Positions 2,985 to 7,108 of a DNA stretch of 43,480 bases are shown in pieces (the first letter of the stretch is position 1; each line of letters starts with the position of its first letter). The notes beneath the pieces were generated by a model. That model had not been told where the DNA came from. It did no database searches and was given only the letters and a program-made list of their open reading frames with translations. The position numbers and the translations under genes were made by a program. This stretch comes from an uncultured Chloroflexota bacterium (GTDB lineage Bacteria; Chloroflexota; Anaerolineae; UBA4142; SHND01): assembly GCA_937870825.1 (NCBI GenBank), contig CALMZO010000445.1:1-43480 (forward strand). The letters are read 5' to 3'.

Positions 2985-3236
2985 TCAATCTGTGAACTGC
3001 TGATACACAATCAACACCAGCAACTCACCCAGAAACGCAATTACAACATACTCCCAAGGCATCCGGGTTGTGAACGCGAGCGTGACGAGTGAAGTCATGA
3101 TAATGAGCGCGACACTGTAGAGAAACTTGCCGACGAAATCTTCGGGCAGATGTGATTTGCGTTTGGAACGTTTGTTGGAGAACAAGGACCGACGTGTGCG
3201 GTTCTTGTTTTGTTTTCGAGAATTGAAATTTGTCAT
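2985..3236 (-). CDS. Small two-helix membrane protein, hypothetical
   Basis: 83 aa. The N-terminus is very basic (about residues 1-28, rich in Arg, Lys and Asn) and is followed by two hydrophobic stretches (FLYSVALIIMTSLVTLAF and WEYVVIAFLGELLVLIVY), predicting a two-pass membrane protein with a cytoplasmic basic tail. It starts 5 bp after the stop of the B-family polymerase gene and so is probably the last gene of that minus-strand operon. I recognise no family. No strong ribosome-binding site is visible, but the spacing and the protein-like composition support it. Confidence 0.55.
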   Translation of the reverse strand: MTNFNSRKQNKNRTRRSLFSNKRSKRKSHLPEDFVGKFLYSVALIIMTSLVTLAFTTRMPWEYVVIAFLGELLVLIVYQQFTD

Positions 3237-3241
3237 TCAGG

Positions 3242-5602
3242 TCAAGCAAAAACGCGCGCACGATTCATTCGATGCGTTTGCTGCGTCTGCTGTGTTTGCG
3301 TGGCAAACGTAGCAAACAACGGCAGTTCCATTTGCGGCGAGGGCAGCGCGGGACGCGGACGCGCGGGCAGCAAGTGACGCGTGAGGTCGAGACGTTTTTG
3401 GAGCGCGCTCTGTTTGACGCCAAGCGCGCTGAATAATGTCGTCACCGTTCGCGCGGTGAGTTCCGCATAACGCGCGGCGTCATAACCGTACAAACCGTCG
3501 AGATGTTCCACCGCGCGCGCGCGGTCCGACGGCGCACGCGCGCGATATTCCGTAATCACATAGCGAATTGTTTCACCCGCCGCGAGCTGCACGCCGCGCC
3601 CCAACAATTCTTTGGCGACAACTGCGTTGAGGTGATTGGTCTTGTATGCTTTAGGGTCGCGCGAGAGATGCTGCGAAATTACCAAATCGCGAAACGGAAT
3701 TTGCCCCGCGTGCAATTTGTCCAAAAGGTCGAGCGTCATGCGTAAAACGTCGCGCGCGCGTTCGAGAAATTCCGCGCGATTTTTCGCGGTGGCGAGTACG
3801 CCAATCATTTCCACTTGCGCGCGGCGGAGAAAGGGGGGGGTGTCGGAACGCCGCGCTTCGATGCCGCGCATTTTGATTTCGCCGTCGCGGAACACGCCGA
3901 AATAGCGATTGGCGACGGGCATCTGCGGGTCTTGACGCGACGGCAAAAACGCAATCCAGTTGTAAATCCCTTCCAGTTGAATCGGCAGACGCGTCGCGTC
4001 GGAAATCGCGCGCGTGATTTCCGCGTAATCCTCGTCGCTTGCGCGCGCTTTGTGAATCCACAGCGAATCTACAATCGCGTGCAGCATTCGAAAACCGCGC
4101 AGTTCCGCGATTTCTTTGGCAATCAATAACGCGTCGCGCCCGTACGCATTCACCGCTTCGTGCGCTTCGATTTTTCCAAAGCGCGCATTCTTGTAACCCA
4201 AATATCCGAAACACGTCACGAGCAGCCATTTGTGCGCGGACACGCGGCGTTTGTACGTTTCGCGCAGCGGGTCATTTTTCGCGAGTTCGCGCGCCAATTG
4301 TTTGTAACGCACGCGTTTTTCAATCAACGGCGCGAGCGTTTCGGGAATGAGTCCGCGCCGCTTGCGACAAATCGAGTAGCCGAGTTCGGGAACGCGCGCA
4401 TCGCCGCAGCACGGACAGTTCACCGTTTCGGGCGACACGTTAAATTTTTCCATAATCGTCGGAAACATCGAAACGAAATCGAGTTCCGCCACCTCTTCGT
4501 GCAAACCGACGACGGGCTGAAACACGAGTCCCCCTTTGTCGGAAACAATCAATTCGTCCGCCGTTTTCCACGCTTCGGGTTCGCGTTTTTGCCAAGGAAT
4601 CAGCCAGCCGTTGCGGTACGCCGTCGCGATTTCCATCGCGCTGATGCCCGAACCCGTTGACGTGCGCGCGACGTGCTGCACCGGCACTTGCGTGATGCGC
4701 GCAAGTTCGAACGTTCCGTCCAAGCCGTAATCGTCAATCAAAAACGCGTTCTCGCGGTCAATGTGCCAGCGTCCGCACAACACATGCGACGCGGTTTTGT
4801 ACACGATGCGTCCGTACGAAAAATAGGAACGCGCGGGACGAAATTGAATCGCGCGCGCTGCATCGCGATTCAGCGACAGCGGCACGCGATATTTGCGCGC
4901 GAGTTCGATGAGACGCGGCAAGATGAACGAATCGCCCCACGCGCTCACGATAATGTCGGGGTCGTACTCGACGAGCAATTCTTGAAAACGCAGCAGCATT
5001 TCGCGCGGGTCATCGTCCACCAACACGCGCGTCGAATCGTCGAGCCCCACTTCGAGCGGCGCGCGGACGCCGTGATTCGGATTGAGCAAATCCCCTTCGA
5101 GTTTCAGCGTCATCACCTTGAACGGCGGCAGCGCGTAATTCAATTCCCACGGCGATTCGTGTGCGTTCATCGCGCAAATTTGATTTTGTTCATTCACTTC
5201 GACGCGCACGGGCGCGAGCGGGAATACATTGCGTTCGTAAAAATAAAGTTGCGCGGGCGAAATATCACAGTTGTAGTACGTGAGATTGGGGTTGAACTGT
5301 GTCACGGTTTTTACAATGTTTGGCACGCGCGCGGGGTCACTCACGACAATTTCCAAAAGTTCGAGCGTCGCGCGTTGAAAGACATCGTACCGTTCCGCGC
5401 GTTTCATTTGCGCGGGCAGACGCGCCGCGCGAATGTGTTCGCACAATGCGTGCAGTTCGTCGCGTTCGCCCCACGCGAAAAACGATGTCGTGAGCGAATC
5501 GCGCAGTTGATGCGCGCGCCCTTCCCCGTCGAGCAGCCACACCACCATGCCGCCCGACGTGGCATACACATCAAACAACCATCCTTCAATCTGCTTGTTC
5601 AT
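3242..5602 (-). CDS. B-family DNA polymerase, probably proofreading-deficient
   Basis: 786-aa family B polymerase. The start is set at the ATG giving MNKQIEGWLFDVY, which overlaps the preceding stop by 17 bp; an earlier ATG at 5653 would add 17 unlikely residues. Motif A is DFVSMFPTIM (from residue 375), motif B is KWLLVTCFGYLGYKN (from 458), and motif C is HAIVDSLWI (508-516). Motif C keeps only the second Asp of the usual DTD. A Cys cluster (residues 396-412) lies between motifs A and B. In the exonuclease region the usual DIE of Exo I appears as LKLEG (about 166-170), while Exo II keeps an Asp (AWGDSF, 221-226), so proofreading may be lost. A run of 8 G at 3833-3840 falls inside the gene. 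It follows a RecA-like gene and a small helical gene, suggesting a repair or translesion role. Confidence 0.9.
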   Translation of the reverse strand: MNKQIEGWLFDVYATSGGMVVWLLDGEGRAHQLRDSLTTSFFAWGERDELHALCEHIRAARLPAQMKRAERYDVFQRATLELLEIVVSDPARVPNIVKTVTQFNPNLTYYNCDISPAQLYFYERNVFPLAPVRVEVNEQNQICAMNAHESPWELNYALPPFKVMTLKLEGDLLNPNHGVRAPLEVGLDDSTRVLVDDDPREMLLRFQELLVEYDPDIIVSAWGDSFILPRLIELARKYRVPLSLNRDAARAIQFRPARSYFSYGRIVYKTASHVLCGRWHIDRENAFLIDDYGLDGTFELARITQVPVQHVARTSTGSGISAMEIATAYRNGWLIPWQKREPEAWKTADELIVSDKGGLVFQPVVGLHEEVAELDFVSMFPTIMEKFNVSPETVNCPCCGDARVPELGYSICRKRRGLIPETLAPLIEKRVRYKQLARELAKNDPLRETYKRRVSAHKWLLVTCFGYLGYKNARFGKIEAHEAVNAYGRDALLIAKEIAELRGFRMLHAIVDSLWIHKARASDEDYAEITRAISDATRLPIQLEGIYNWIAFLPSRQDPQMPVANRYFGVFRDGEIKMRGIEARRSDTPPFLRRAQVEMIGVLATAKNRAEFLERARDVLRMTLDLLDKLHAGQIPFRDLVISQHLSRDPKAYKTNHLNAVVAKELLGRGVQLAAGETIRYVITEYRARAPSDRARAVEHLDGLYGYDAARYAELTARTVTTLFSALGVKQSALQKRLDLTRHLLPARPRPALPSPQMELPLFATFATQTQQTQQTHRMNRARVFA

Positions 5603-5915
5603 CTTCAAGCCCATCGTCCAGCGCGAGCATCTCGCGCGTAGGATTTTCTCCATCAGGTATCGTCGTCATCAAACGCTCGAAAAGAAATTCCAACTGCTGC
5701 ACGCGTTTGTGTTCTTCCAACAGCATCGCGAGAAGCATCGCTTCAAAGGGCAAGAGATGCGACGCGAACGCGACGGCTTGAACGTGAATGCGCGCGGCGC
5801 GAAACAAATCGTCCAACGCGCGTTGGTCATTTTTCCGCAGCGCGCGGCGAAATTTCGTCAGCGCGTTTTGTTCTTGCAAAATCAATTGCGTAAAAGAGGG
5901 TAGTGTGCGTCCCAT
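5586..5915 (-). CDS. Conserved helical protein between the RecA-like and polymerase genes
   Basis: 109 aa, all-helical in character, with the core LPSFTQLILQEQNAL...RKNDQRALDDLF...LLPFEAMLLAMLLEEHKR. I recognise the type as a hypothetical protein that accompanies this polymerase in Chloroflexota-like gene sets (recollection, not searched). The start at 5915 (MGRTLPSF) is preferred because the upstream in-frame extension is made of CACGAATAA repeats. Its TGA overlaps the polymerase start by 17 bp, so the two are probably translationally coupled and may act together. No catalytic motif is seen. Confidence 0.75.
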   Translation of the reverse strand: MGRTLPSFTQLILQEQNALTKFRRALRKNDQRALDDLFRAARIHVQAVAFASHLLPFEAMLLAMLLEEHKRVQQLEFLFERLMTTIPDGENPTREMLALDDGLEDEQAD

Positions 5916-5924
5916 ATTTTCATC

Positions 5925-5956
5925 CACGAATAACACGAATAACACGAATGAATTTG
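5925..5956. repeat. CACGAATAA short tandem repeat
   Basis: About three copies of a 9-bp unit (CACGAATAA, last copy diverged) lie in the 55-bp gap between the RecA-like gene and the helical-protein gene, directly before the chosen start codon. Confidence 0.8.
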
Positions 5957-5970
5957 TGTGCTGCCCAAAT

Positions 5971-6498
5971 TTATGCGCGCAACCAATGCACATCGTCCGC
6001 GCACGCTTGCAATTTTTTCACGAGCGCGATGCGCGTCAACGCTTCGGCGGGCGGAAGTTTCGCGGTGATGAAAACGAGTCCGCCGTGCGCGCGGTGTTGG
6101 CGAATTTGCGCGCGCAGCGCGTCGAGCAGACGCAGCGCGTCGGCGAGGGGAACGCTCTCGTCATAAAAGGTATCGAGCGCGCCGAGCAAGCACAATACGG
6201 CATCCGGTGCAACCGTTTGCGCCGCCGCGCATTGCGCGAATTGATAACAGGTGAACGCGCGGGCGAGATGGATTTTTTTCAAAATAACGCGCGGGTCACG
6301 GCGCGCGCGCGCGGCAGACCGCGCCAGCGCGTACGCGTCGAAACAATTCGCGCCGTCAATCACGCGCAATGTTTTGTGTTGCAGGGCGAGCCACGCGAGC
6401 GCGGAATTAAGAAACGCACGCGGCAGGGAAGCGCCGAGGACGAGAACGACGCGTCCGCGACGCGTGGTTTGCGAAAAAAGTGTTTGGGGTGAAAACAT
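5971..6498 (-). CDS. RecA/Rad51-like protein with degenerate P-loop
   Basis: 175 aa. The order of motifs resembles the RecA/RadA fold: a first strand and loop LVLGASLPRAFLNSA (residues 18-32, where Walker A should be but without GKT/GKS), then LRVIDGANCFDAYALAR, then ILKKIHLARAFTCYQFAQ, then a Walker B-like strand AVLCLLGAL and a late strand GLVFITAKL. Without the P-loop lysine it is unlikely to bind ATP normally. It sits upstream of the helical protein and the B-family polymerase, reminiscent of ImuA-type degenerate RecA partners of error-prone polymerases; that comparison is inference. A TAGAAC-N4-GTTCTA-like palindrome ends 11 bp before the ATG. Confidence 0.75.
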   Translation of the reverse strand: MFSPQTLFSQTTRRGRVVLVLGASLPRAFLNSALAWLALQHKTLRVIDGANCFDAYALARSAARARRDPRVILKKIHLARAFTCYQFAQCAAAQTVAPDAVLCLLGALDTFYDESVPLADALRLLDALRAQIRQHRAHGGLVFITAKLPPAEALTRIALVKKLQACADDVHWLRA

Positions 6499-6508
6499 GT
6501 TTCCCTAA

Positions 6509-6524
6509 TAGCACAAATGTTCTA
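6509..6524. promoter_or_regulatory. Candidate LexA-type operator, one mismatch (TAGCAC-N4-GTTCTA)
   Basis: A 16-bp imperfect palindrome, read on the minus strand as TAGAACATTTGTGCTA. It lies 11 bp upstream of the RecA-like start codon and overlaps a TATAGA sequence that could be a minus 10 box. The GAAC-N4-GTTC core is the LexA-binding core known from Bacillus and actinobacteria. The perfect copy is at 7059-7074. Confidence 0.55.
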
Positions 6525-6600
6525 TACTTGTCTATGGGGAAACTGCGTATTTTTGCGGGGAATCTTGTGGTGAGGCAATACGCAAGCGGATTACGTATCT

Positions 6601-6981
6601 CTATTTTGTATGTCGGTCCGGTGATTCCACAAGCTCGCGCAGCACATATTTCAATTCACTGCGCGAGCGAATGTTGAGTTTGCGATAGATGTTTTGCAGA
6701 TGTTTGTCCACGGTGCGTACGCTGATGGAAAGTTGTTTGGCAATTTCGGTGCTCGACTGCCCTTGCATCGCGCGCAGCGCGATTTCGCGTTCGCGCGCGG
6801 TGAGCGGATACGCAGGGGTATTGTTTTCGAGCGCCACCGTTTTGGTTTCCATGTTCCGTGCGTGCGCGTCGTCAGTGCGCCCATTCCGTACACGCGGAAC
6901 GCGCGGCGTACTCGAATAGTACACACCCACGCTGACCGCGAGGAAAACAAACACGAGCGCTCCGACGATAAACCAATCCAT
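6601..6981 (-). CDS. Membrane-anchored LuxR-type HTH protein
   Basis: 126 aa. One N-terminal transmembrane helix (WFIVGALVFVFLAVSVGVYY, residues about 3-22) is followed by a short linker and a complete LuxR/GerE DNA-binding domain (LTAREREIALRAMQGQSSTEIAKQL... then VRTVDKHLQNIYRKL; about residues 60-115). There is no receiver or sensor domain. A DNA-binding domain tethered directly to the membrane is uncommon. It is the first gene of the minus-strand block leading to the RecA-like and polymerase genes, with a 102-bp gap to the RecA-like gene. A strong promoter with an overlapping palindromic operator lies upstream. No clear ribosome-binding site is seen. Confidence 0.8.
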   Translation of the reverse strand: MDWFIVGALVFVFLAVSVGVYYSSTPRVPRVRNGRTDDAHARNMETKTVALENNTPAYPLTAREREIALRAMQGQSSTEIAKQLSISVRTVDKHLQNIYRKLNIRSRSELKYVLRELVESPDRHTK

Positions 6982-7058
6982 AGGGTAGAGAACACATTGC
7001 GATTCCTGCGCGAGGAAAATGACAAGGGGAAGCAGGCGACAGCCGAGGGGGTTGTCAA

Positions 7059-7074
7059 TAGAACCTTAGTTCTA
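7059..7074. promoter_or_regulatory. Perfect palindromic operator TAGAAC-CTTA-GTTCTA (candidate SOS box)
   Basis: The 16-bp site TAGAACCTTAGTTCTA has perfect 6-bp arms with a 4-bp spacer, matching the GAAC-N4-GTTC core of Gram-positive-type LexA boxes. It starts 5 bp downstream of the minus 10 box of a minus-strand promoter, so it covers the transcription start, where a repressor would block initiation. A near copy lies at 6509-6524. Confidence 0.65.
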
Positions 7075-7079
7075 ATGCG

Positions 7080-7108
7080 ATTCTATCAAATTCAGCCGCG
7101 CGGGTCAA
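7080..7108 (-). promoter_or_regulatory. Sigma70-type promoter for the LuxR/RecA-like/polymerase block
   Basis: On the minus strand TTGACC (7108-7103), a 17-nt spacer and TAGAAT (7085-7080) form a near-consensus promoter. It points at the LuxR-type gene, whose ATG is about 100 bp downstream. The palindrome at 7059-7074 overlaps the predicted start site. The rest of the 6982-7251 gap holds a TTGACA at 7130-7135 on the plus strand without a convincing minus 10 box. Confidence 0.6.

What the first reader, a model, noticed from the sequence alone, without database searches (positions are those of the whole stretch)
2985..7108. Candidate SOS-controlled B-family polymerase cassette with a RecA-like partner
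The window shows a perfect TAGAAC-N4-GTTCTA palindrome (7059-7074) 5 bp after the minus 10 box of a TTGACC-N17-TAGAAT promoter that reads into a five-gene minus-strand block. A one-mismatch copy (6509-6524) lies 11 bp before the RecA-like gene. The block encodes a membrane LuxR-type protein, a RecA-like protein without a P-loop, a small helical protein, a B-family polymerase with a weakened exonuclease, and a small membrane protein. GAAC-N4-GTTC is the known LexA core in Gram-positive bacteria, and E. coli Pol II and ImuA/ImuB/DnaE2 are known SOS polymerase systems. The inference is a functionally analogous mutagenic or translesion module built on PolB.
Basis: partly seen in the sequence, partly recalled or inferred. 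Interest (0 to 1): 0.78.

Follow-up and report, generated by a model that had tools for sequence, protein, structure and literature searches.

The report
LexA-boxed PolB2 mutasome operon
A Chloroflexota gene cluster for an archaeal-type error-prone DNA polymerase complex carries the same control sites as a SOS-type repressor gene of its own genus, and that matching repressor has lost parts of the self-cutting machinery that normally switches such genes on.

Summary
The palindromes are real and more than chance. A matrix built only from twelve boxes in the lexA-B promoters of the genus ranks 7059 and 6509 first and second of all window positions (22.1 and 16.5; next 9.0). An exact GAAC-N4-GTTC lies upstream of 9 of 11 Chloroflexota copies of the cassette (about 0.05 expected), on or beside a promoter; the other two have one mismatch. 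Like boxes mark lexA-B (6 of 6 genomes of the genus), mraZ (6 of 6) and, as a variant, recA (6 of 6).

The genes are not a new module. They are the published bacterial PolB2 mutasome, iRadA-PPB2-PolB2 (PMC11791011). New here: the LexA-type operator; an HTH gene first where Nitrospirota and others have lexA; three PolB2 genes in this genome; and LexA-B, the best-matching repressor, which lacks the scissile pair and at least one catalytic residue in 6 of 6 genomes, yet is under purifying selection. A cleavable LexA-A shares the core and may carry the damage signal. Against: two HTH genes have such boxes without mutasome genes beside them. Damage induction was not testable. The 83-aa membrane gene is not part of the conserved module.

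The parts
7080..7108 (-). Promoter TTGACC-N17-TAGAAT reading into the cassette
   Evidence: 10 of 12 consensus matches, TG before -10
7059..7074 (.). Operator 1, TAGAACCTTAGTTCTA, 5 bp after the -10, over the expected transcription start
   Evidence: best of all window positions with the lexA-B matrix
6601..6981 (-). LuxR/GerE-type HTH protein, 126 aa, with an N-terminal membrane-like helix in this copy
   Evidence: (PF00196 E 7e-18); an HTH gene of this type stands first in 10 of 11 Chloroflexota cassettes counted
6509..6524 (.). Operator 2, TAGCACAAATGTTCTA, ten bases before iRadA
   Evidence: also before iRadA in C316, C1 and G001
5971..6498 (-). iRadA, RadA/Rad51 homologue without Walker A, 175 aa
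   Evidence: family profile vs PDB RadA E 5e-14; pLDDT 94.1; Walker A in 0 of 33 rows
5586..5915 (-). PPB2, small helical partner, begins MGRT
   Evidence: MGRT in 51 of 52 relatives
3242..5602 (-). PolB2, B-family polymerase, 786 aa; motif C IVDS instead of DTDS; exonuclease motifs decayed; C-terminal QMELPLF (clamp-like, by eye and from recall of the consensus)
2985..3236 (-). Small membrane protein, 83 aa; not a conserved member
   Evidence: among the loci tested found only in the window and G005

Best explanation
This is a bacterial PolB2 mutasome operon (HTH gene, iRadA, PPB2, PolB2) held off by a LexA-family repressor. The repressor sits on operator 1 over the promoter, and probably again on operator 2 before iRadA. 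When released, the operon makes a polymerase that extends past lesions, with iRadA and a PPB2 trimer as partners. Shown by sequence: the gene set, the operators, their conservation, and that they match the promoter of lexA-B better than that of lexA-A. Inferred: LexA-B is the main reader; the cleavable LexA-A, which shares the GAAC-N4-GTTC core, passes on the RecA damage signal; and LexA-B, which lacks parts needed for self-cleavage and carries boxes in its own promoter, acts as a brake that limits the size or length of mutagenic synthesis.
For: Gene set and order equal the published bacterial operon. Operators: exact core in 9 of 11 cassettes, one mismatch in the other two (corrected), next to or inside the promoter. 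In 138 upstream regions of ten of the sequences 9 held the exact core, 8 of them the cassette operator itself. lexA-B promoters: two boxes in each of 6 genomes. SOS-like set: recA 6 of 6, mraZ 6 of 6, FtsK-like genes, radA/sms and a repair-type radical SAM gene in some genomes. LexA-B dN/dS 0.09-0.31 over 15 pairs. LexA-B: scissile pair absent in 6 of 6, Ser in 5 of 6, Lys in 5 of 6; 49 of 49 other fetched LexA rows keep Ser and Lys.
Against: G013 and G017 carry the cassette and a box, but only a class-1 LexA was found in them. Operator 2 is missing in G002, G013, G014, G017, L097 and L148. Two HTH genes, in C123 and in G003 (L206), have such boxes without mutasome genes found beside them. LexA-A was not found in G001 (93% complete). 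No expression data exist.
Confidence: 0.58

Rival explanations
1. Ordinary SOS control by the cleavable LexA-A alone. The boxes are variants of one GAAC-N4-GTTC motif, and LexA-B is a paralogue with little part in it.
For: LexA-A keeps Ala-Gly, Ser and Lys. Class-1 LexA boxes elsewhere in the class are mostly AGAAC-N4-GTTCG, close to the cassette boxes. G013 and G017 have the cassette but only a class-1 LexA was found. The G001 operator 2 and the recA box score better with the lexA-A matrix.
Against: Operator 1 fits the lexA-B matrix better by 5.6 bits. LexA-B is under purifying selection and keeps two boxes in its own promoter in 6 of 6 genomes. LexA-A was not found in G001.
Confidence: 0.22
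2. LexA-B controls the operon but answers a signal other than DNA damage, as proposed for the non-cleavable LexA of Synechocystis.
For: Catalytic parts are lost. Passages of PMC3091678 describe a LexA with Gly-Gly and Ser to Asp that has probably taken another function.
Against: The boxed genes include recA, mraZ, radA in G000, repair-type genes and a translesion polymerase, which is an SOS-like set.
Confidence: 0.12
3. The palindrome is the autoregulatory site of the LuxR-type protein encoded by the first gene.
For: The box lies upstream of an HTH gene in 10 of 11 cassettes, and HTH genes with the box but without mutasome genes found beside them exist in C123 and in G003 (L206).
Against: The same kind of box lies at lexA-B and mraZ in 6 of 6 genomes, and before iRadA in L099, where no such HTH gene was found. 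LuxR-type genes were not searched for genome-wide.
Confidence: 0.06
4. Chance palindromes.
For: Window-only counts are modest.
Against: Conservation and position upstream of orthologues; first and second rank with an independent matrix.
Confidence: 0.01

Closest known systems
Bacterial PolB2 mutasome operon (iRadA-PPB2-PolB2), Timinskas et al. 2025 PMC11791011; Makarova et al. 2014 PMC4104785
   Same: Same three genes in the only order reported for bacteria, MGRT arm, missing first Asp of DxD, exonuclease without active site, RadA homologue without ATP site, link to LexA.
   Different: lexA is not in the operon; a LuxR-type HTH gene stands first; the operator is in the promoter and the LexA is encoded elsewhere. 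A word search of the paper's main text finds no 'operator', 'LuxR' or 'Chloroflex'.
Sulfolobus Dpo2 (PMC7390963, PMC8764526; listing and abstract starts)
   Same: Same polymerase family, damage-inducible, translesion extension and error-prone tolerance.
   Different: Archaeal; the regulator found near archaeal polB2 is of the orc1/cdc6 type rather than LexA (PMC11791011).
ImuA/ImuB/DnaE2 cassette and LexA2 of Pseudomonas putida (recalled; listing only)
   Same: A RecA-like helper plus an error-prone polymerase under a second LexA.
   Different: C-family polymerase with ImuB; unrelated partners. One Y-family gene per genome in 5 of 6 genomes, none found in G004.
Non-cleavable LexA of Synechocystis PCC 6803 (PMC3091678, passages)
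   Same: LexA that lost the cleavage site and the catalytic Ser.
   Different: A single LexA with presumably changed function; here it is a paralogue beside a cleavable LexA (found in 5 of 6 genomes) and keeps SOS-like targets.
LexA site at mraZ in gut metagenomes (PMC3998124, passages)
   Same: mraZ with a LexA site.
   Different: Bound by B. subtilis LexA in vitro; other bacteria.

Membership tests
PolB2 mutasome | Operon order iRadA-PPB2-PolB2 | tested here: met
PolB2 mutasome | PPB2 with N-terminal MGRT | tested here: met
   window MGRT; 51 of 52 relatives in the loci; C316 and G001 read MGHT
PolB2 mutasome | First Asp of the DxD motif replaced | tested here: met
   IVD in the window; replaced in 9 of 9 rows of A1
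PolB2 mutasome | Exonuclease active site lost | tested here: met
   read by eye: ExoI LKLEG and ExoII WGDSFILP, no DxE; Pfam exonuclease domain 16.1 bits against a cut-off of 23
PolB2 mutasome | iRadA is a RadA/Rad51 homologue without Walker A | tested here: met
PolB2 mutasome | D(K/R) motif contacting the PPB2 arm | tested here: inconclusive
   A DR at 282-283 is a candidate by eye; not aligned to S. islandicus PolB2
PolB2 mutasome | Translesion activity | not testable with these tools
   no biochemistry
LexA/SOS regulon | Same box in the promoter of a lexA gene of the genome | tested here: met
   (lexA-B, 6 of 6 genomes); lexA-A has other flanks
LexA/SOS regulon | recA shares the box | tested here: met
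   variant GAAC-N4-GTGC in 6 of 6; the G000 site scores 8.9 with the lexA-B matrix and 14.8 with the lexA-A matrix
LexA/SOS regulon | Best-matching repressor has the parts for self-cleavage | tested here: not met
   LexA-B lacks the scissile pair and at least one of Ser, Lys in 6 of 6; LexA-A keeps them
LexA/SOS regulon | Induced by DNA damage | not testable with these tools
   no expression data
E. coli Pol II | Pol II family model | tested here: not met
   68.3, 50.9 and 46.5 bits against cut-offs 570, 1103 and 1435
ImuA/ImuB/DnaE2 | Y-family ImuB and C-family DnaE2 in the cassette | tested here: not met
   B-family polymerase; the Y-family genes found are not in the cassette. DnaE2 elsewhere in the genome was not searched

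The most novel reading that the evidence does not exclude
In this genus a LexA paralogue that cannot cut itself has been kept as a dedicated, self-limiting brake on the mutasome, the division cluster (mraZ) and other repair genes, working against a cleavable LexA on shared sites. Mutagenic repair would then be gated by competition between two LexAs, or by a still unknown release signal, rather than by RecA-driven cleavage alone.
Probability: 0.4. Interest if true: 0.75.

Novelty: new variant of a known kind. Interest (0 to 1): 0.58.

Why it matters
It gives operator-level evidence that PolB2 mutasomes in Chloroflexota are wired to LexA even where lexA is not in the operon. That turns a gene-neighbourhood hint in the literature into a testable regulatory claim. 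In this genus the translesion-type polymerase with LexA boxes is PolB2; of the five Y-family genes found, four have no core within one mismatch in the 600 bp examined and one has a core with other flanks. A LexA that lacks cleavage parts but keeps an SOS-like target set is a natural test of what LexA does when its switch is removed.

Tried and rejected
Class-1 box TCGAAC-N4-GTTCG as a genus-wide regulon motif: counts were no clearer than the control. An ImmA/IrrE-like peptidase gene with two boxes (L058) as the release factor for LexA-B: rejected as a general mechanism, because the protein was found in 1 of 20 genomes of the order. Phage origin: 1 relative in viral contigs, not pursued. Defence role: the PADLOC matches of the polymerase, HTH and PPB2 proteins look like shared domains or are weak, and iRadA and the 83-aa protein have none. 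Operators in Nitrospirota-type operons: no exact GAAC box in the loci scanned; ATGT-N11-ACAT, with arms of only four bases and no shuffle control, is shared by 10 of 12 close relatives.

Counted first and then corrected: C123 was taken as a fourth cassette start; one search found another reading frame, not iRadA, after its second box, so it is no longer counted as a mutasome. The 12 regions thus hold 11 cassettes.

Rows dropped: the LexA fragment L091 was left out of the table and alignment and of the tree. The interrupted G005 cassette was left out, and so was C126, because its contig ends inside PPB2. Start codons of C1, C123 and G002 were set by eye, downstream of the longest ORF. For L099 the region was moved 60 bases downstream, because its box lies 33 bases inside the longest iRadA ORF; strictly upstream of called ORFs it would be a miss.
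Full report
What was checked. The window is contig C445 of a 7.23-Mb assembly in 446 contigs, 95% complete and 5.1% contaminated. Closest named relatives of the cassette are Chloroflexota and Anaerolineae metagenome assemblies.

What the genes are. The polymerase matches DNA_pol_B (E 1.2e-28) and a B-polymerase model (400.7 bits, below the cut-off of 516). The block is the published bacterial PolB2 mutasome operon, in bacteria always in the order iRadA-PPB2-PolB2 (PMC11791011: outline, text parts 1-3 of 7 and passages; PMC4104785: passages). The defining marks are present: PPB2 begins MGRT (51 of 52 relatives too); motif C reads IVDS, so the first Asp of DxD is gone, as in 9 of 9 rows; exonuclease motifs are decayed by eye; Walker A is absent in 33 of 33 iRadA rows. 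A profile of the 33 iRadA rows finds RadA in the PDB at E 5e-14, and the window protein models with pLDDT 94.1.

Conservation of the block. In the order, 7 of 20 genomes have PolB2. HTH gene, iRadA, PPB2 and PolB2 stand in that order in the window, in C316, G001, G002, G013, G014 and G017, and in L097 and L148. G000 has three PolB2 genes: window, C316 and C126. Contig C1 holds an HTH gene, both boxes and the first residues of an iRadA like that of C316, and may be the missing start of C126. In the 60 loci carry a LexA near PolB2, none of them among the 9 Chloroflexota loci, of which 7 have an HTH gene first. All 24 keep Ala-Gly, Ser and Lys.

The operator. One search tested 12 Chloroflexota regions, 250 bp upstream of the first gene. 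One of them, C123, has an HTH gene but no iRadA after it. Of the 11 cassettes, 9 have an exact GAAC-N4-GTTC (shuffles predict about 0.05; for all 12 regions 10 observed and 0.056 expected), L097 has one mismatch, and L099 has one mismatch in a box that lies 33 bases inside its longest iRadA ORF. Six control patterns gave 0. By eye the box lies just after the -10 in the window, C316, C1, G001 and G002, and between -35 and -10 in G013, G014, G017, L097 and L148. Both places suit a repressor. In 138 upstream regions of ten of the sequences one exact core is unrelated to the cassette. Operator 2 is seen before iRadA in the window, C316, C1 and G001; L099 has its only box there; it is missing in G002, G013, G014, G017, L097 and L148.

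Which repressor. The genome has two LexA genes. LexA-A has CGAACGCGTGTTCG in its promoter. LexA-B has two boxes of the YAGAAC-N4-GTTCTR kind, and so do its orthologues in all 6 genomes of the genus, 27 to 31 bp apart; the first box in three of them begins TGGAAC. A matrix from those 12 boxes puts the two window sites first and second of all positions; operator 1 fits it 5.6 bits better than a matrix from 10 lexA-A boxes, operator 2 by 1.7. LexA proteins of the same helix type in the other family of the order also have such boxes and keep the parts for cleavage. LexA-A binding is not excluded: its matrix gives operator 1 16.5 bits.

The odd repressor. LexA-B of the genus forms one group (100/100) inside its class, on a long stem of 1.77 changes per site (midpoint root). 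At the aligned scissile pair none of the 6 has Ala-Gly or Ala-Ser; G005 has an Ala-Ser one residue off and G004 an Ala-Gly further on. Ser is lost in 5 of 6 and Lys in 5 of 6, and each of the six lacks at least one of the two. The 49 other fetched Chloroflexota LexA rows, a part of all matches, keep Ser and Lys in 49 of 49, with Ala-Gly in 39 and Ala-Ser in 10. dN/dS is 0.09 to 0.31 over 15 pairs, with dS often above 1, and the DNA-binding half is better kept than the rest in every pair, so it is not a dead gene. Six separate assemblies agree, which speaks against sequencing error or contamination.

The regulon. Exact YAGAAC-N4-GTTCTR occurs 45 times against 11 for the reversed control in the 6 genomes. 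Boxes lie before lexA-B (6 of 6), before mraZ with 7 to 40 bases between (6 of 6; TIGR00242), before FtsK-like genes and, in 4 of 6, before a repair-type radical SAM gene (TIGR03916 at 300.5 bits, below its cut-off of 343.5). In G000 radA/sms has a one-mismatch box. recA has a GAAC-N4-GTGC variant in 6 of 6. Of five Y-family genes four show no core within one mismatch in 600 bp and L243 shows an exact core with other flanks. Results that fit less well: boxes near genes with no evident link to repair (for example L039, L154, L164, L202, L203, L210), and boxes at HTH genes without mutasome genes beside them in C123 and in G003 (L206).

How it most likely works. Shown: gene set, operators, conservation, loss of LexA-B cleavage parts. 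Inferred: repression at both operators; release through RecA-driven cleavage of LexA-A; LexA-B as a brake. The first gene may add a second control; its role is unknown. Damage induction was not tested.

What is in print. The listed rows of searches, in a library of open-licence papers only, show no report of an operator for a Chloroflexota PolB2 operon; most of those papers were not opened. mraZ with a LexA site (PMC3998124, passages) and a non-cleavable LexA in Synechocystis (PMC3091678, passages) have precedents. Paralogous LexA-like regulators with diverging boxes are described in Bacteroidetes (PMC8565304, passages).

Noticed in passing
L040:4776, L200:2143, L161:1501, L208:2070, L204:2147, L209:2082: A LexA-B-type box lies 7 to 40 bases before mraZ, head of the division cluster, in 6 of 6 genomes of the genus.
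   Followed up: yes
L048:503-1070 (C123) and L206:2248-2700 (G003): HTH genes with the box, C123 even with both boxes, but without iRadA, PPB2 or PolB2 found beside them; in G003 the box lies beside an M4-type peptidase gene, as in the window.
   Followed up: partly
L058:3285-4513: HTH plus ImmA/IrrE-type peptidase gene with two boxes in its promoter; found in this genome only among 20 of the order.
   Followed up: partly
L037:5979-8469: lexA-B is followed by a Cys-rich protein of 323 aa and an FtsK-like protein. Relatives of the Cys-rich protein also stand beside many other LexA genes of the order; function unknown.
   Followed up: partly
L042 (C1) and L028 (C126): Further cassette pieces at contig ends in the same genome; they may be one cassette, which this assembly cannot settle.
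   Followed up: partly
L211 and L030: In G005 the orthologous cassette is interrupted between the iRadA and PPB2 parts and split over two contigs, with a second HTH fragment.
   Followed up: partly
L152:8001-10442: A PolB2 relative in a viral contig (IMGVR_UViG_3300044800_000430), the only one found in that collection; no iRadA or PPB2 detected in the 8 kb before it.
   Followed up: no
L100, L104, L106-L109, L113, L114, L117, L134 upstream of lexA: Shared palindrome ATGT-N11-ACAT before the lexA-first PolB2 operons of Nitrospirota, 10 of 12, possible operator of that LexA type.
   Followed up: partly
G001 (L214): LexA-A was not found in G001; if truly absent, its only LexA would be the type without cleavage parts.
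   Followed up: partly
window:11456-12190: ORF with a tandem APGVLSAEA repeat.
   Followed up: no
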